64,000 bases of DNA, taken from assembly GCF_000383235.1 (NCBI RefSeq), contig NZ_KB910933.1, forward strand, positions 39,826 to 103,825, read 5' to 3'. The DNA is from Bacillus sp. 123MFChir2. Lineage in GTDB: Bacteria > Bacillota > Bacilli > Bacillales > Bacillaceae_G. How positions within the stretch are numbered: position 1 is the first letter of the stretch; every line of letters begins with the position of its first letter. Shown here piece by piece: positions 36,351 through 48,254 of this stretch. The position numbers and the translations under genes were made by a program. The notes under the pieces were generated by a model. That model was not told the origin of the DNA, searched no databases, and worked only from the letters and a program-made list of their open reading frames with translations.

Positions 36351-36387
36351 TTTTGTGACAAACTTGTAGTTTTTTGTCTGATTTTGT
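36351..36387 (+). promoter_or_regulatory. GlnL-type TTTTGT direct repeats
   Basis: TTTTGT occurs at 36351, 36372 and 36382; the last two are separated by four bases (TTTTGTCTGATTTTGT). B. subtilis GlnL (YcbB) binds TTTTGT-N4-TTTTTGT repeats. A GlnL-family regulator is encoded at 42.5 kb in this cluster. Confidence 0.65.
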
Positions 36388-36431
36388 AGGTTCGTCTTTA
36401 TCATGTGATTATGCTTTTATACATTAGGAAT

Positions 36432-36445
36432 TGAAAGCGTTCGCA
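36432..36445 (+). promoter_or_regulatory. candidate cre site (CcpA)
   Basis: TGAAAGCGTTCGCA matches the cre consensus TGWNANCGNTNWCA at all but one defined position. It lies between the TTTTGT repeats and the symporter start, where CcpA would block transcription. Confidence 0.6.
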
Positions 36446-36462: not shown

Positions 36463-37734
36463 ATGAAAAAATTCGGATTAGCTACACAAATTTTTGTAGC
36501 GCTTATTTTAGGGATTGTTGTAGGGGCAATCTTTTATGGAAATAAAACAGCTATTTCCTATATTACACCGCTTGGGGACATATTTATTCATTTAATTAAA
36601 ATGATTGTCGTTCCAATTGTTATATCTGCACTTATTGTTGCAGTAGCTGGTGTGGGCGATATGAAGAAGCTCGGTAAATTAGGCGGGAAAACAATCCTTT
36701 ATTTTGAAATTATCACGACGATTGCTATTTTAATGGGCTTAGTAGCAGCAAATGTGTTCCATCCAGGAACGGGCGTTGATATGAGTCATTTACAGCAAAG
36801 TGATATTTCAGCGTACAAAGCAACAGCTGATGCAACGGAGAAAAAAGGTTTTGCAGAAACAATTGTTCATATTGTACCAAAAAACGTGTTTGAATCTATT
36901 GCACAAGGGGACTTATTACCGATTATTTTCTTCTCAGTGCTATTCGGTTTAGGAGTTGCTGCAATCGGAGAAAAAGGAAAGCCAGTCTTTAATTTCTTTG
37001 AAGGCGTATTAGAAGCAATGTTTTGGGTGACAAATCAAGTCATGAAATTTGCTCCAGTTGGTGTATTTGCACTAATTGCTGTTACAGTTGCAAAATTTGG
37101 AGTGGCTACACTGCTTCCGTTAGGAAAATTAGTGGTTGCAGTTTACGTAACAGTTGCGTTATTTGTTATTGTGGTACTAGGTATAAATGCAAAAATGGTA
37201 GGAGTAAACATTTTCACCTTAATGAAAGTTATAAAAGAAGAATTGATTCTTTCTTTCACAACAGCAAGTTCAGAAGCTGTTTTACCAAATATCATGAGAA
37301 AAATGGAAGAGTTCGGTTGTCCGAAAGCCGTTGCTTCTTTCGTAATACCTACTGGCTATACATTTAACTTAACGGGATCGGCTATTTATCAAGCATTAGC
37401 GTCACTATTTGTAGCGCAAATGTATGGTATACACATGTCACTAACAGAGCAAGTTACATTGTTATTTGTTTTAATGTTAACGTCTAAAGGAATGGCTGGT
37501 GTTCCTGGAGCGTCCTTTGTTGTTGTGTTGGCAACATTAGGTTCAATGGGACTTCCATTAGAAGGAATTGCTTTAATTGCTGGTATTGACCGCATTTTAG
37601 ATATGATTCGTTCGTCTGTCAATGTATTAGGGAACGCATTAGCAGCGATTGTCATGTCGAAATGGGAAGGTGAATTTGATCAAGAAAAAGCAAAACAGTA
37701 TGTAGAAACTGTAAATCAAACAAAAGCAGCATAA
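36463..37734 (+). CDS. dicarboxylate/amino acid:cation symporter (GltP/DctP family)
   Basis: 423 residues, DAACS family: helices with VGAIFYGNKTAISYITPLGD, the HP1 serine-rich tip LSFTTASSEAVLPNIMRKME, the helix-7 motif GYTFNLTGSAIYQALASLF (NxxG) and HP2/helix 8 GVPGASFVVVLATLG, LIAGIDRILDMIRSSVNVLG N. It co-transports glutamate, aspartate or C4-dicarboxylates with H+/Na+. ATG 36463 follows GGAAGGG by nine nt; the ATG at 36445 is upstream of that site. First gene of a group with aspartase, malic enzyme and a GlnKL-type system. Confidence 0.9.
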   Translation: MKKFGLATQIFVALILGIVVGAIFYGNKTAISYITPLGDIFIHLIKMIVVPIVISALIVAVAGVGDMKKLGKLGGKTILYFEIITTIAILMGLVAANVFHPGTGVDMSHLQQSDISAYKATADATEKKGFAETIVHIVPKNVFESIAQGDLLPIIFFSVLFGLGVAAIGEKGKPVFNFFEGVLEAMFWVTNQVMKFAPVGVFALIAVTVAKFGVATLLPLGKLVVAVYVTVALFVIVVLGINAKMVGVNIFTLMKVIKEELILSFTTASSEAVLPNIMRKMEEFGCPKAVASFVIPTGYTFNLTGSAIYQALASLFVAQMYGIHMSLTEQVTLLFVLMLTSKGMAGVPGASFVVVLATLGSMGLPLEGIALIAGIDRILDMIRSSVNVLGNALAAIVMSKWEGEFDQEKAKQYVETVNQTKAA

Positions 37735-37907: not shown

Positions 37908-39347
37908 ATGGCAACAGTAACTGAAGCTACAAAAGATGTGCGAATTGAAAGAGATTTTTTAGGCGAGAAAGAAGTGCCAATGCATGCGTATTATGGTGTT
38001 CAAACGATGCGTGCGGTCGAAAACTTTCCGATTACAGGTTATAAAATCCATGAAGGATTAATTAACGCATTAGCGATTGTAAAAAAAGCGGCAGCGCTTG
38101 CAAATACAGATGTTGGACGATTAGAACTAAAAAAAGGTACAGCAATTGCAGAGGCAGCAGAAGAGATTCTTGAGGGGAAATGGCACGAGCATTTTATCGT
38201 AGATCCGATCCAAGGCGGAGCTGGAACTTCTATGAATATGAATGCAAATGAAGTGATTGCCAATCGTGCTCTTGAATTATTAGAAATGGAAAAAGGCGAC
38301 TATCATTACATTAGCCCAAATAGCCACGTGAATATGGCGCAATCAACAAATGATGCATTCCCAACTGCAATTCATATTGCAACGTTAAACTCATTAGAGG
38401 GATTATTACAAACGATGGGATATATGCGTGATATCTTTGAATTAAAAGCAGAGCAATTTGACCATGTTATTAAAATGGGACGCACGCATTTACAAGATGC
38501 TGTACCGATTCGTCTTGGACAAGAGTTTAAAGCATATGCTCGCGTACTTGGACGTGATATTAAACGTATCGAGAAATCTCGTCAACATTTATATGAAGTA
38601 AATATGGGAGCGACAGCTGTTGGTACAGGATTAAATGCAGATCCACAGTACATTGAGGCTGTAGTAAAACATTTAGCGGATATTAGTAAATTGCCTCTTG
38701 TTGGAGCAGAAGATTTAGTAGATGCAACGCAAAATACCGATGCATATACAGAAGTTTCAGCTGCACTGAAAGTATGTATGATGAATATGTCCAAAATTGC
38801 AAATGACTTACGCTTAATGGCATCTGGTCCACGCGTTGGATTGAGTGAAATTATGCTTCCAGCTCGTCAACCTGGTTCTTCTATTATGCCAGGAAAAGTA
38901 AACCCTGTAATGCCAGAAGTAATTAACCAAATTGCGTTCCAAGTAATTGGAAACGACCATACAATCTGTCTTGCTTCAGAAGCAGGCCAATTAGAACTGA
39001 ATGTAATGGAACCAGTGTTAGTATTCAACTTACTTCAATCAATCAGTATTATGAATAACGGTTTCCGTGCTTTCACAGATAATTGCTTAAAAGGAATTGA
39101 AGCAAATGAAGCACACTTAAAAGAATATGTTGAGAAAAGCGTTGGTATTATTACAGCTGTAAATCCACATATCGGATACGAAGCAGCAGCTCGCGTTGCA
39201 AAAGAAGCAATTGCAACAGGTCAATCTGTCAGAGAACTTTGCTTAAAAAATGGTGTGTTATCACAAGAAGAATTAGACTTGATTTTAGATCCGTTTGAAA
39301 TGACGCATCCTGGAATTGCAGGAGCATCTCTTTTAAAGAAAAATTAA
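37908..39347 (+). CDS. aspA: aspartate ammonia-lyase
   Basis: Deaminates L-aspartate to fumarate and ammonia. 479 residues. [20 protein letters not shown] replaces the GSGTQ of fumarase, and the signature [20 protein letters not shown] (PVMPE) is diagnostic for aspartase within the superfamily. ATG with AAGGTGAGGAG upstream. It follows the symporter, which could bring in its substrate, and precedes malic enzyme; a terminator closes it. Confidence 0.95.
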
Positions 39348-39377: not shown

Positions 39378-39420
39378 TTACAATATAGAAATGTTATATA
39401 TCAATAAAGGTAGGGGTTTT

Positions 39421-41133
39421 ATGAGTAAATTTACAGTTTCCTCGAATGGAACTTTAGAAACAACATTACGGGGAAGAGAAGTATTAGCAACACCACTTTT
39501 AAATAAGGGCGTCGCTTTCTCGGCGGAGGAAAGAGAAGAACTAGGGCTGAAAGGGTTATTACCACCAGCTGTATTGACATTGGATGAACAAGCACTTCGT
39601 GCGTATGAACAATTTTGTTCACAGCCTGATGACTTATTAAAAAACGTATACTTAACAGCACTGCATGATCGTAATGAAGTATTATTTTATCGTATTCTTA
39701 CAGATCATTTGCGAGAAATGCTTCCAATTGTATACACGCCAACTGTTGGTGTAGCGATTCAAAGATATAGTCATGAGTACCGTAAGCCACGTGGTGTATA
39801 TTTATCAGTTAATGATCCAAATGGTATCGAGGAAGCCTTTTCTAACATTGGTGCAACTGCGGAAAATGTTGATTTAGTTGTAGTAACAGACGGTGAAGGT
39901 ATTTTAGGAATTGGAGACTGGGGCGTTGGTGGTATAAATATTGCTATCGGAAAACTAGCTGTTTACACAGCAGCAGTTGGTATTGATCCAAGTCGTGTAT
40001 TACCTGTTATTTTAGATGTTGGTACAAACAATGAAGATTTATTAAATAATCCGTTTTATATCGGAAATCGTCATCCACGTGTAACGGGAGAAGCGTATGA
40101 TACATTTATTGATTTGTTTGTAAAAGCTGTATGTGACAAGTTTCCGAATGCATTGCTGCACTGGGAAGATTTTAGCACACGTAATGCACGCAAAATTTTA
40201 AATAAATATCGTGATAATGTATGTACATTTAACGATGATATTCAAGGAACGGGCGCTGTTTCACTAGCAGCTGTGTTATCAGCTGTGAAAGCCTCTGGTG
40301 TTCCGTTATGTGAACATCGCGTTGTTGTTTTTGGTGCGGGTACCGCAGGGATTGGAATTGCAGATCAAGTACGTGATGCGATGGTCCGCTTAGGTTTATC
40401 ACAGGATGAAGCAAACCGACGTTTTTGGTGTATTGACCGTAATGGTTTACTTACTGACAATATGGATGATCTTCTTGATTTCCAACGTCCTTATGCACGT
40501 GAGATGTCTGAAGTCGAACAATGGAAGCAGTCAGAAACGATTGGTCTTGCTGAAGTTGTAAAACATGTACAACCAACTATTTTAATTGGGACATCAACAG
40601 TTGCTGGTGCATTTACAGAAGAAATTGTAAAAGAGATGGCAGCACACGTGGCAAGGCCAATTATTTTACCAATGTCTAATCCAACACCTCTTGCAGAAGC
40701 GAAGCCAGTCAACTTAATTTCTTGGACAGAAGGGCGAGCGCTTGTTGCAACTGGTAGTCCATTCGAACCAGTTACATATAATGGAGTTACTTATGTAATT
40801 GGACAATCTAACAATGCACTTATCTTCCCAGGCCTTGGTCTTGGTACAAATGTTGTTCGTGCTCGTGTCATGACAGATGGTATGTTTACGGCGGCAGCAG
40901 AAGCGGTAGCAAGTATGGTAGATACAAGTCAACCGGGTGCACCAATTCTTCCAGAAGTAGAAGAACTACGTAATATTTCAGAGATTGTTGCTGTTGAAGT
41001 AGCTAAAGCGGCAGTTGCTGAAGGTGTTGCTCGTGAGGTATTAAATGATAACGATATCAAGAAGGCTGTTAAGGATGCAATGTGGCAACCTGTTTATCGT
41101 CCAATCAAAGCAATTGAAAAAGTAACAGTATAG
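39421..41133 (+). CDS. NAD-type malate dehydrogenase (oxaloacetate-decarboxylating), malic enzyme
   Basis: 570 residues, the long (MaeA/SfcA) type. Malate and metal sites: [21 protein letters not shown] and the catalytic Lys region [23 protein letters not shown] site [25 protein letters not shown]-type motif as [17 protein letters not shown]. Converts malate to pyruvate with CO2 and NADH. ATG 39421 with AAAGGTAGGGG upstream; the earlier ATG at 39391 lacks one. Part of the C4-acid module; separated from aspA by a terminator. Confidence 0.94.
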
Positions 41134-41136
41134 GAA

Positions 41137-41166
41137 TAGAGCCCGTTTATATATTAAGCGGGCTTC
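41137..41166 (+). terminator. terminator of the malic enzyme gene
   Basis: AGCCCG and CGGGCT with a 13-nt AT-rich loop, followed by a short T-rich stretch. Confidence 0.65.
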
Positions 41167-41190: not shown

Positions 41191-42510
41191 ATGGGAAGTG
41201 ACGTATTGAACTGGCATCAACTGTGGAAGAAAGATATTTCACTTTTAATTATGTTAATTTTGATTGTTCCGGTTGCTGGAGAGCTGAACTTTCATCCATT
41301 TAATGATACATTTCGTGTTAGCTTTGGAACACCGATTTTCTTCTTTTTACTATTATTGTTAAGGAAAATTCCAGCTGCTATAGCGGGAGTTCTTGTCGGG
41401 ATATCTGTCGTAACATTTCGAATTGGCCTTGATTGGATGTTACAAAGTTCTTTTCATTTCTCAGACTCCTTTTGTATGCGTTATCCAGTTTTCTTTTATT
41501 ATTTCGTATATGGAAATCTTTTTTCAGTGTGCAGAGTAAACCGATTTCATCAAAAGCCATTTATAATCGGGTGTTTTGGTATTACGATTGAAATTATTTC
41601 AAGCATGGCAGAACTTACTTTTTATCATATTTTTGTGCTAAGCACGATGATTACAGTTTCAGAAGTCAATAAAATTATTATTATTGCTATTTTTCGCAGT
41701 TTTTTTGCGCTTGGCTTTTTAAATATGATGAGTTTATATGAGACAAAATTAAAAGAAGCACAGGTCCGAAAAGAAAATGAAAAAATGTTTATGCATCTTT
41801 CTAATTTGTATGTAGAATCTGTTCACTTGAAGAAAACGTTGCAAGATGCAGAAAGGATTACACAAGAAGCTTATCAATTATATCGAGATCTACAAAAGAA
41901 AGGTAGCGCTGATAATGAGATAGAGGCGTATAGTAAGAACGCACTGAAAATTGCAGGAGAAGTGCACGAAATAAAAAAAGACAATCAAAGAATTTTTGCT
42001 GGGTTATCTAAACTTCTTTTAGATAAAAATCTTTCAGAATATGTAAATGGAAATGAATTAGCAGAAATGATTATAAGAATTAACGAGAAATATGCGCAAT
42101 TATTACAGAAGGAAATTGTATTTTCTAAACAAGTAAAAGGGGAACATACGCAGTATCATGTATATACCGTACTGTCGATTTTAAATAATTTAGTTGCAAA
42201 TGCTGTAGAAGCGATTGAACGTGCTGGTATAATTGCAATTTATATTAAGAAGCAAGGAGCGGTTGTTACGTTTGAAGTAATAGACGATGGTCCGGGCATT
42301 TCAGGAAAATATAAGGAGTTAGTATTTAAGCCTGGTTTTACTTCAAAATATGATCAATCAGGAACGCCGTCAACAGGAATCGGCCTATCTTATATAAAAG
42401 AGATGGTGACGGAACTTGAGGGGGAGGTTATACTACAAGACAGAGACGCTGAAAGAGGCTGCAAGTTTATTGTACGGCTGCCGGAATCTAGCCTTATTAA
42501 GGAAGGATGA
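41191..42510 (+). CDS. glnK: GlnK (YcbA)-like sensor histidine kinase
   Basis: 439 residues: about six N-terminal membrane helices, a coiled-coil (KEAQVRKENEKMFMHLSN), a SpoOB-type His box (EVHEIKKDNQRIFAGLSKLL) and an HATPase with NNLVANAVEAIERAG, DDGPGIS and GIGLSYIKEMV. The membrane layout and its pairing with a YcbB-type regulator identify it as the GlnK/YcbA family, which senses glutamine in B. subtilis; here the neighbours point to glutamate, aspartate or C4 acids. The TTG at 41206, after GGGAAGTG, is an alternative start. Confidence 0.78.
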   Translation: MGSDVLNWHQLWKKDISLLIMLILIVPVAGELNFHPFNDTFRVSFGTPIFFFLLLLLRKIPAAIAGVLVGISVVTFRIGLDWMLQSSFHFSDSFCMRYPVFFYYFVYGNLFSVCRVNRFHQKPFIIGCFGITIEIISSMAELTFYHIFVLSTMITVSEVNKIIIIAIFRSFFALGFLNMMSLYETKLKEAQVRKENEKMFMHLSNLYVESVHLKKTLQDAERITQEAYQLYRDLQKKGSADNEIEAYSKNALKIAGEVHEIKKDNQRIFAGLSKLLLDKNLSEYVNGNELAEMIIRINEKYAQLLQKEIVFSKQVKGEHTQYHVYTVLSILNNLVANAVEAIERAGIIAIYIKKQGAVVTFEVIDDGPGISGKYKELVFKPGFTSKYDQSGTPSTGIGLSYIKEMVTELEGEVILQDRDAERGCKFIVRLPESSLIKEG

Positions 42511-42514
42511 GTCT

Positions 42515-43447
42515 ATGTTTTATTACATCGTAGATGATGATGAAGTATTTCGTTCTATGTTAGCGAAAATTATTGAAGATGAAGACCTTGGAGAATTAAT
42601 TGGAGAAGAAGAAGATGGGGCTTTCGTAGAAGGCGATCAGTTAAACTTTAAAAAAGTAGATATATTATTTATTGACTTATTAATGCCAATTCGTGATGGG
42701 ATTGAAACGGTTCGGCACATTCTCCCATCATTTTCGGGGAAAGTGGTTATGATTTCTCAAGTAGAATCAAAACAATTAATAGGTGAAGCTTACTCTCTTG
42801 GTATTGAATATTATATTACAAAACCTCTTAATAAAATTGAAGTTGTATCCGTTGTACGAAAAGTGATAGAACGTATTCGTTTGGAACGGTCTATTCAAGA
42901 TATTCAAAAGTCATTAAACAATGTATTTCAATGGGAGCAACCAAAGGGACGAATAGAATCAGGACTAGAAGAGAAAAAATTTGTTGATTTTTGTCGTTTT
43001 TTATTAGCAGAACTAGGGATTGCTGGGGAGAACGGAAGTAAAGATTTACTAAGTATGCTGGAATACTTATATCAATATGAAAAGAAGGCAACCTTTGAAC
43101 ATGGATTTCCAGTATTAAAAGATATTTTTCAACATATTACGGTTAAAAAGTTAGGTGAAATGGCTTCGGAATGTGAGATTGATAAAGAGAGAAAAGCTTC
43201 AGAGCAAAGGGTGCGCCGAGCAATTTATCAATCACTCAATCATTTAGCTTCTCTTGGTTTAACAGATTTTTCGAATCCGAAATTTGAAAGCTATGCTCCG
43301 AAATTTTTTGATTTTACAATTGTGCGTAAGCGAATGACAGAGTTAACAAACGAATCATTAGCAACAGCCGGTCATACACGAATTAATACGAAGAAATTTA
43401 TTCAAGTGTTATATTTTGAAGCGAAGCGGTTGACTGAAGACGACTAA
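42515..43447 (+). CDS. glnL: GlnL (YcbB)-like response regulator
   Basis: 310 residues: receiver domain (VDDDEVFRSML, Asp in ILFIDLLMPIRDG, Lys in YYITKPL), then the C-terminal YcbB-type domain (EKKFVDFCRFLLAELGIAGE, EQRVRRAIYQSLNHLASLGL, TNTKKFIQ-like end) instead of a common HTH. GlnL binds TTTTGT direct repeats upstream of glutaminase-type genes; matching repeats are upstream of the symporter at 36.4 kb. ATG 42515 after GGAAGGATGAG, four nt beyond the kinase stop; the frame upstream of it lies inside the kinase gene. Confidence 0.85.
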   Translation: MFYYIVDDDEVFRSMLAKIIEDEDLGELIGEEEDGAFVEGDQLNFKKVDILFIDLLMPIRDGIETVRHILPSFSGKVVMISQVESKQLIGEAYSLGIEYYITKPLNKIEVVSVVRKVIERIRLERSIQDIQKSLNNVFQWEQPKGRIESGLEEKKFVDFCRFLLAELGIAGENGSKDLLSMLEYLYQYEKKATFEHGFPVLKDIFQHITVKKLGEMASECEIDKERKASEQRVRRAIYQSLNHLASLGLTDFSNPKFESYAPKFFDFTIVRKRMTELTNESLATAGHTRINTKKFIQVLYFEAKRLTEDD

Positions 43448-43524: not shown

Positions 43525-43732
43525 TTATATAAATACAAGTTGACTTTTTAACATATAAGTCGCTGCTATGCAGAACAAAACATGGCCGCCACTTGCTTTC
43601 TATCTTTGTTGTAAACTTTGCACGTGGCAGGAAAAGGAACTGACCGCCTCTATGCATGGCCAGTTGCTCTCGCCCACCGAAAAAGAAGAGGGTTTTCATG
43701 TTAGTTTTTCAATTTGCATCTATATATACGCC
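43525..43732 (-). repeat. family A repeat, reverse copy
   Basis: Carries the core in reverse (GTGGCAGGAAAAGG, CTATGCATGGCCAG) and ends in TATATAAATACAAGTT and CAATTTGCATCTATATATA-type sequence. The rest of 43733-43892 is AT-rich with no gene seen. Confidence 0.78.
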
Positions 43733-44151: not shown

Positions 44152-44499
44152 ATGACTTTTTCCTTTCCGACAGTTGCTCATAAAAATGAACAGCAGGATA
44201 TAATAGTATATCATAACATGGACAGTAATGCGCAAAATTCTCAGGTTAATGAGATGAAAGATGTGATAGACATTTCATTTTATATTGATACGCCATTAGA
44301 CATAGCAATGGCGGGAAGATTTATTCGTAATCCTTTACATACTATTGATGAGGTTCTTTTCGAATGTGAGGTATACTTGCAAGCTGGGAGAGAGGCATAT
44401 TTAGAGATGGAGAAAAGTGTGAAACCAAATGTTGACTACGTAATTGATGGGGAGATGGCGGTTGAACATATCGTAGAAGCAATTATGAATAAGTTGTAA
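44152..44499 (+). pseudogene. P-loop kinase-like protein, C-terminal fragment
   Basis: 115 residues. ISFYIDTPLDIAMAGRFIR and the tail DYVIDGEMAVEHIVEAIMNK L match the C-terminal half of small nucleoside-kinase-like AAA proteins (usually DTPLDIAMARR). The P-loop half is missing: the frame opens directly after stops and the ATG has no ribosome site. Probably a truncated, dead gene beside a family A repeat. Confidence 0.6.
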
Positions 44500-44530: not shown

Positions 44531-44711
44531 TTATAAATACAAATTGAAAAAATGACATTTTAGATAGGCAAGAGCGTCTGGCCATGCATAGAAGCAGTCA
44601 GGGCCTTTTCCTGCCACGGACAATGGTTAAAACAAAGAGAGAAAACGAGTGCAAGATATTTTTCTCTCTAGCAGCAACTTGTAAGCTGAAACATTAAAAT
44701 GGATTTATATA
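44531..44711 (+). repeat. family A repeat, forward copy
   Basis: TATAAATACAAATTGAAAAA at the left, core CTGGCCATGCATAGAAGC and CCTTTTCCTGCCAC, right end AAAATGGATTTATATAG. Confidence 0.8.
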
Positions 44712-47270: not shown

Positions 47271-48254
47271 ATGTATCAAACATTAATGACAGTAAGAGAA
47301 ACACAAATCGCAATTAAGGAAGTTAAAACATTTTTTGAAGAGCAATTATCAAAACGTCTTGAATTATTCCGCGTATCTGCGCCATTATTTGTAACGAAAA
47401 AATCAGGATTAAACGATCATTTAAACGGTGTGGAGCGCCCAATTGAATTTGATATGCTGCATTCAGGAGAAGAGTTAGAAATTGTACATTCACTTGCAAA
47501 ATGGAAACGATTCGCACTGCATGAATATGGGTATGAAGCGGGTGAAGGTTTATATACAAACATGAACGCAATTCGCCGCGATGAAGAGTTAGATGCAACG
47601 CATTCCATTTACGTTGATCAATGGGATTGGGAGAAAATGATTCAAAAAGAATGGCGTACAGTAGATTATTTACAGGAAACAGTACAAACAATTTACGGAA
47701 TATTCAAAGATTTAGAAGGTTATTTGTTCGAAAAATATCCGTTTCTTGGAAAATATTTACCAGAAGATATCGTATTTATCACATCACAAGAGCTTGAGGA
47801 TAAATATCCAGAATTAACACCAAAAGATCGTGAACATGCAATTGCAAAAGAACACGGTGCCGTTTTTATTAGCGGAATTGGCGGAGCGTTGCGTTCTGGT
47901 GAAAAACATGATGGGCGTGCAAGTGACTATGATGATTGGAAATTGAACGGAGATATTTTATTCTGGCATCCAGTATTGCAATCTTCATTTGAATTATCAT
48001 CGATGGGAATTCGTGTTGACAGCAAATCTCTTGATGAACAATTAACAATAGCAGGAGAAGATTTCAAACGTGAATACGATTTCCATAAAGGAATTTTAGA
48101 AGATGTACTACCGTTAACACTTGGCGGCGGCATTGGGCAATCAAGAATGTGCATGTATTTCTTACGTAAAGCACATATCGGTGAAGTACAATCTTCTGTA
48201 TGGCCAGATGAAATGCGTGAAGAGTGTAAAAAGCAAAACATTCACTTGTTCTAA
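47271..48254 (+). CDS. asnA: aspartate--ammonia ligase (asparagine synthetase A)
   Basis: Makes asparagine from aspartate, ammonia and ATP. 327 residues; class II aaRS-like core with [52 protein letters not shown] and the C-terminal [23 protein letters not shown] motif 3. ATG with AGGAGG upstream. Transcription is controlled by the T-box just upstream. Competes for aspartate with aspartase and the aspartokinase encoded next door. Confidence 0.95.

What the first reader, a model, noticed from the sequence alone, without database searches (positions are those of the whole stretch)
36351..36445. GlnL-type repeats and a cre site in front of an amino-acid/C4-acid symporter in a cluster that encodes a GlnKL pair
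Seen: TTTTGT-N4-TTTTGT at 36372-36387 plus a further TTTTGT at 36351, and TGAAAGCGTTCGCA at 36432. Known: B. subtilis GlnL (YcbB) binds TTTTGT direct repeats; CcpA binds cre. Inference: the regulator at 42.5 kb controls the symporter 6 kb upstream, giving a self-contained sensing, uptake and catabolism module (symporter, aspartase, malic enzyme) rather than the glutaminase regulon of B. subtilis.
Basis: partly seen in the sequence, partly recalled or inferred. Interest (0 to 1): 0.7.

Follow-up and report, generated by a model that had tools for sequence, protein, structure and literature searches.

The report
GlnL-type switch for aspartate-use operon
A row of short DNA repeats in front of a bacterial amino-acid uptake and breakdown operon is very probably the docking site of the regulator encoded at the end of the same gene cluster, and the same switch recurs in related bacteria before many genes that use glutamate, glutamine, aspartate and asparagine.

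Summary
In detail: TTTTGT units at 36351, 36372 and 36382 and a cre at 36432. A degenerate unit (ACTTGT, 36362) completes a helically phased array. A promoter model trained without the window finds one site in its 64 kb, this one.

The array is conserved. All 17 co-linear symporter-aspartase-malic enzyme-kinase-regulator clusters examined carry it, with a cre. In 249 Bacillales genomes the promoter was found in 19 of 49 with a YcbB-type regulator and 0 of 200 without.

Operon, cre and GlnKL-like pair were described in B. cereus in 2008, role left open (PMC2358912, passages). And 'self-contained rather than the glutaminase regulon' fails in the nearest relative examined: Ectobacillus has one YcbB gene but six further such promoters before Glx/Asx genes, among them GlnT, glutamate dehydrogenase and an asparaginase. 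Glutaminase genes use the design elsewhere.

The parts
36351..36356 (+). outermost TTTTGT unit (11 bp before the next unit)
36362..36367 (+). degenerate unit ACTTGT (H1), followed by AG
36372..36377 (+). TTTTGT unit H2
36382..36387 (+). TTTTGT unit H3, followed by AG; 9 nt before the -10-like position
   Evidence: promoter model match 36364-36400
36397..36402 (+). -10-like position by homology (TTTATC, only 3 of 6 to TATAAT; weaker than in most relatives)
   Evidence: spacing seen in other loci; inference for the window
36431..36445 (+). cre (CcpA site) TTGAAAGCGTTCGCA, no mismatch to WTGNAANCGNWNNCW (consensus recalled)
36463..37734 (+). SDF-family symporter, closest to GltP glutamate/aspartate symporters (579.8 bits, below that model's cut-off of 638)
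37908..39347 (+). aspartase (aspartate ammonia-lyase)
39418..41133 (+). malic enzyme (oxaloacetate-decarboxylating malate dehydrogenase)
41139..41165 (+). terminator-like hairpin between malic enzyme and sensor kinase
41191..42510 (+). GlnK-like sensor histidine kinase, hydrophobic N-terminal half, no Pfam sensor domain
42515..43447 (+). GlnL-like response regulator: receiver plus YcbB DNA-binding domain (Spo0A-like fold predicted)

Best explanation
The array 36351-36387 is the operator of the YcbB-type response regulator at 42515-43447. Kinase and regulator answer to an acidic amino acid or its amide (aspartate/glutamate class most likely); phosphorylated regulator binds head to tail on units one helical turn apart, in the place of a missing -35 element, and recruits RNA polymerase to transcribe symporter, aspartase and malic enzyme (aspartate to fumarate; malate to pyruvate). 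CcpA on the downstream cre blocks this when glucose is plentiful. In relatives the same promoter design is reused across glutamate, glutamine, aspartate and asparagine use, so the window cluster is probably the regulator's home and one target of a wider regulon. Shown here: the sequence features, their conservation and their co-occurrence with the regulator. Inferred: binding, activation, ligand, roadblock by CcpA, and the wider regulon in the window's own genome.
For: Array plus cre before the symporter in 17 of 17 co-linear five-gene clusters examined. Of 726 upstream regions in 51 loci, 25 score 15 or more of 18: 15 SDF symporters (of 31 SDF regions), 8 glutaminases, 1 M14 carboxypeptidase, 1 unrelated gene. 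Layout unit-4-unit-4-unit-9-[-10] in 21 aligned promoters, GT invariant in the first two units (these 21 were chosen for having an array). Promoter model hits at E <= 5e-4 in 19 of 49 YcbB-bearing and 0 of 200 YcbB-lacking Bacillales genomes, Fisher p 1.4e-15, or 3.6e-14 without G001 and G004, the two known to hold training loci. cre without mismatch within 90 nt after the array at 13 of 43 sites, window included, against 1 of 626 control regions. The glutaminase gene of B. swezeyi, next to a GlnKL pair and a GlnT-type gene, carries an array of score 16 about 270 bp upstream. The effector domain has a Spo0A-like predicted fold. In a B. cereus ccpA mutant the corresponding operon was higher expressed (PMC2358912, passages read).
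Against: No binding or expression data for this regulator were found. The window's -10-like element is poor (TTTATC). 30 of 49 YcbB-bearing genomes gave no promoter hit at the strict setting (20 candidates scored per genome); 16 of 31 SDF regions score below 15, 7 of them at 14, and some loci show no recognisable array (by eye L037, L041, L049; the neighbours of L028 and L045). The B. swezeyi glutaminase site scores weakly with the model (14.8 bits; E 0.059 genome-wide). Genomes are related, so the Fisher test overstates; further training genomes may hide among the unnamed ones. One genome without the regulator (G026) had a hit at E 5.2e-4 in a laxer search, before an unrelated gene. A terminator-like hairpin separates the operon from the kinase gene, so feedback on the regulator's own genes is not shown.
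Confidence: 0.85

Rival explanations
1. One reading: the pair serves only this operon (self-contained module) and has no part in glutamine or glutamate use.
For: Operon and regulator are adjacent in the 17 clusters examined, which were found through the regulator; the window's 64 kb holds one site only.
Against: Ectobacillus, with the same cluster and one YcbB gene, has the same promoter before GlnT, glutamate dehydrogenase, asparaginase and other transporters. G010 (one YcbB gene) and G002 (two) also have such a site before an asparaginase.
Confidence: 0.15
2. The array is a site of another regulator, for example Spo0A, whose recognition box also contains TTTGT (recalled).
For: The YcbB effector domain is Spo0A-like, so the boxes may look alike. 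Weak array-like sites precede an Hpr/ScoC-like gene in three related genomes (L215, L219, L220; name by recalled resemblance).
Against: 0 of 200 YcbB-lacking Bacillales genomes have the promoter. Spo0A_C was present in 8 of 8 YcbB-bearing genomes tested and 53 of 61 sampled from the phylum; it was not tested in those 200 themselves. Sites sit next to YcbB genes and before Glx/Asx genes.
Confidence: 0.05
3. Chance: T-rich upstream DNA in an AT-rich genome.
For: With one mismatch the bare pattern occurs 10 times in the window; in 8 genomes the three-unit pattern with two mismatches was no commoner (104) than its reversed control (111).
Against: Conservation in 17 of 17 clusters, 93-96 bp before the start codon in the twelve measured, the 10-bp register, and the genome association.
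Confidence: 0.02

Closest known systems
Bacillus subtilis GlnK-GlnL (YcbA-YcbB) and its glsA-glnT operon
   Same: Same response-regulator architecture (receiver plus YcbB); regulator 60% identical to that of B. swezeyi, which sits by a glutaminase and a GlnT-type gene; same array and spacing before glutaminase genes. TTTTGT-N4-TTTTGT as the GlnL site is recalled and given in the finding; Satomura 2005 is not held.
   Different: Target here is symporter-aspartase-malic enzyme; the two kinds of regulator form separate, well supported groups (100/98 and 100/99).
B. cereus ATCC 14579 BC1739-BC1743 (PMC2358912)
   Same: Same gene order: aspartate symporter, aspartate ammonia-lyase, malic enzyme, GlnKL-like pair, with a putative cre; passages read.
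   Different: The passages read mention no repeat array, leave the pair's role open and call the operon unique to the B. cereus group; it also occurs in Ectobacillus, a Neobacillus and other Bacillus genomes.
Spo0A and its 0A boxes
   Different: Pfam sees no Spo0A_C domain in it; sequence profiles alone give only 12-14% probability, and an end-to-end alignment 0.2%; different targets.

Membership tests
GlnL/YcbB response regulators | receiver domain plus YcbB domain (PF08664) | tested here: met
   Response_reg 1.5e-16, YcbB 1.9e-49
GlnL/YcbB response regulators | partner sensor kinase encoded immediately upstream | tested here: met
   HATPase_c protein at 41191-42510; same order in relatives
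GlnL/YcbB response regulators | TTTTGT-N4-TTTTGT array at the target promoter | tested here: met
GlnL/YcbB response regulators | direct binding of the regulator to the array | not testable with these tools
   needs footprinting
B. subtilis GlnKL (strict orthologue) | adjacent glutaminase-GlnT operon | tested here: not met
   neighbours are SDF, aspA, malic enzyme; regulator lies outside the glsA group of the tree
B. subtilis GlnKL (strict orthologue) | control of glutaminase/GlnT somewhere in the same genome | not tested
   window's genome is not held; in Ectobacillus a GlnT-type gene carries the promoter
Spo0A-type effector domain | Spo0A_C fold | tested here: met
Spo0A-type effector domain | match to the Spo0A_C sequence family (PF08769) | tested here: not met
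   no match at E 0.001; hhalign probability 12-14% locally
CcpA-controlled promoter (cre) | match to the cre consensus near the presumed start of transcription | tested here: met
   consensus recalled; start of transcription inferred
CcpA-controlled promoter (cre) | derepression without CcpA | not tested
   reported for the B. cereus operon (PMC2358912, passages), not tested here

The most novel reading that the evidence does not exclude
YcbB-type regulators are a nutrient-sensing sister lineage of Spo0A: the same effector fold, reading helically phased direct repeats in place of a -35 box, runs one promoter design with a cre across the whole aspartate, asparagine, glutamate and glutamine economy of Bacillaceae, the symporter being a commoner partner than the glutaminase operon by which the system is known.
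Probability: 0.6. Interest if true: 0.65.

Novelty: new variant of a known kind. Interest (0 to 1): 0.52.

Why it matters
It gives the question left open in 2008 (what the GlnKL-like pair beside the aspartate operon does) a specific, testable site, and turns a two-gene glutamine switch known from B. subtilis into a candidate regulon for all four Glx/Asx amino acids. The Spo0A-like fold would link an amino-acid regulator to the master regulator of sporulation and raises the question whether the two read each other's sites.

Tried and rejected
The bare pattern was too common to use alone: three units with two mismatches in 8 whole genomes gave 104 matches against 111 for the reversed control. 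Sites judged chance or unclear and not counted as regulon: L132, L133, L134, L135, L137, L139, L140, L180, L181, L183, L187, and the coding-sequence matches at 42979-43004 in the window. L182, L215, L217, L218, L219, L220 and the second site in L136 are left open. Loci L052-L080 match only the receiver part (halophilic archaea and the like) and were dropped. The regulator alignment A1 used 41 sequences of the 71 loci then on hand (51 plus 20); near-duplicates, fragments, L010 (a stop inside) and L100 were left out. Broken or partial regulator genes (L010, L021, L044, L046, L048, L050, L051) were described, not joined. Foldseek alone did not find Spo0A at E <= 1e-3; the link rests on VIA-align's second look plus a short local sequence match; an end-to-end hhalign gave P 0.28.

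Literature searches (all ten). In the listings and passages seen, no paper reports this array or a YcbB-Spo0A kinship. Satomura 2005 is not held; de Been 2008 (response-regulator sites in B. cereus) was seen only in reference lists and may predict this site, so the array is not claimed to be unpublished.

Full report
What is there. At 36351-36387 stand three TTTTGT units and one degenerate unit (ACTTGT) at steps of 11, 10 and 10 bp, and a cre at 36431-36445 just before an SDF symporter gene. The cluster is symporter, aspartase, malic enzyme, sensor kinase, response regulator with a YcbB domain. The symporter scores best with the GltP glutamate/aspartate model, but below its cut-off, and next with DctA, also below cut-off, so the substrate is likely but not certainly an acidic amino acid.

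More than chance. One-mismatch copies of the bare motif are frequent (10 in the window, 2.88 expected). The three-unit array before the symporter was matched by 2 of 2000 shuffles. A sequence-only model of 66 positions, trained on 21 promoters of other loci chosen for having an array, finds a single site in the window, this one.

Conservation. Of 80 loci, 51 carry a YcbB relative or a fragment of one; 29 match only the receiver part. In the 51 loci, 726 regions upstream of open reading frames (120 residues or more) were scored for three units at period 10: 25 reach 15 of 18, namely 15 of 31 symporter regions, 8 glutaminase regions, one M14 carboxypeptidase (L047) and one unrelated gene. Of the 8 glutaminases, L005 was confirmed by Pfam and seven are judged by matching N-termini. 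Misses: 16 of 31 symporter regions score below 15 (7 of them 14). By eye L037, L041, L049 and the symporter of L047 show no clear array, and L025, L035, L039 and L050 show a diverged TTCAGTAGG-like form that the score undervalues. B. swezeyi's glutaminase (L016) was missed because its array lies about 270 bp upstream, outside the 250 bp scored; it has score 16 but only 14.8 bits with the model. In the co-linear symporter-aspartase-malic enzyme-kinase-regulator cluster the array is present in 17 of 17 (L001-L004, L046, L185, L186, L256-L265; in L046 the regulator gene is split into two frames). It starts 93-96 bp before the symporter's start codon in the twelve measured. The cre is exact in the five scored and visible by eye in the other twelve. 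Several of these genomes are close kin.

Association with the regulator. In 249 Bacillales genomes the model hits at E <= 5e-4 in 19; a YcbB gene is found in 49; all 19 lie within the 49 (Fisher p 1.4e-15). In a laxer search of 17 genomes, 10 of the 12 with a YcbB gene had best E of 1.5e-6 or lower (at least six of them, G001-G004, G006 and G008, hold training loci) and the other two 0.0039 and 0.059; the five without a regulator match had 0.026, 0.029, 0.031, 0.034 and 5.2e-4, the last before an unrelated gene.

Regulon. Outside the cluster the same design precedes, by Pfam: a GlnT-type symporter (L128; L136), a glutamate dehydrogenase (L127), a glutaminase with a glutamate dehydrogenase behind it (L176), an asparaginase with an apparent signal sequence (L129, L138; L173 by near-identical N-terminus), a second SDF symporter (L130; L175 by N-terminus), amino-acid permeases (L126, L131, L216), a malic enzyme (L177), an amino-acid ABC operon next to a kinase-regulator pair (L222; L223 by similarity) and glutaminases next to such pairs (L225, L226; L179 by similarity). 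Ectobacillus (G001), with a single YcbB gene, holds L126-L131; of these L131 is the least certain, its site lying about 500 bp before the gene and without a cre. This is why 'rather than the glutaminase regulon' is not supported.

Promoter anatomy. Units are followed by 9 nt and a TATAAA-like element in many loci; the array covers the -35 position. A cre without mismatch lies within 90 nt downstream at 13 of 43 sites against 1 of 626 controls; with one mismatch allowed 28 of 43 against 37 of 626 (consensus recalled). The window's own -10-like element is weak. A terminator-like hairpin follows the malic enzyme gene.

Tree. Of 41 regulators, the operon-type rows form one group (100/98) and the glutaminase-type another (100/99); symporter partners are spread over the tree (root for drawing only; partner labels are mine).

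Prior art. PMC2358912 (passages) describes the operon, a putative cre, higher expression in a ccpA mutant, and leaves the pair's role open. PMC2743287 (passages) reports strong induction of glsA-glnT by glutamine in B. subtilis. The passages seen of PMC3412718 and PMC3231935 do not treat this site; passages of PMC4168254 and PMC11311612 were looked at for Spo0A and GlnL and add nothing decisive.

Noticed in passing
window 43590-43683 and 44558-44651: 94-nt inverted repeat arms, 81% complementary, 874 nt apart, enclosing a small ORF (44152-44499) without a Pfam match; may be a small mobile element downstream of the regulator.
   Followed up: partly
window 47271-48254: Gene whose product looks like asparagine synthetase A (recalled resemblance), about 4 kb downstream of the regulator; the promoter model has no match there.
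   Followed up: no
L215:1011, L219:1001, L220:4455: Array-like site before a gene resembling the regulator Hpr/ScoC (recalled resemblance) in three related genomes; could be a Spo0A-type site or a link to protease control.
   Followed up: no
L217:989 and L218:1081: Near-identical array-like promoters, on two contigs of one genome, before a fatty-acid desaturase-family gene (Pfam for L217) and a gene that looks like a DMT-type transporter.
   Followed up: partly
L024-L032 symporter upstream regions: A group of regulators goes with a shifted repeat (TTTAGTAGG / TTCAGTAGG instead of TTTTGTAGG); possible co-evolution of regulator and site.
   Followed up: no
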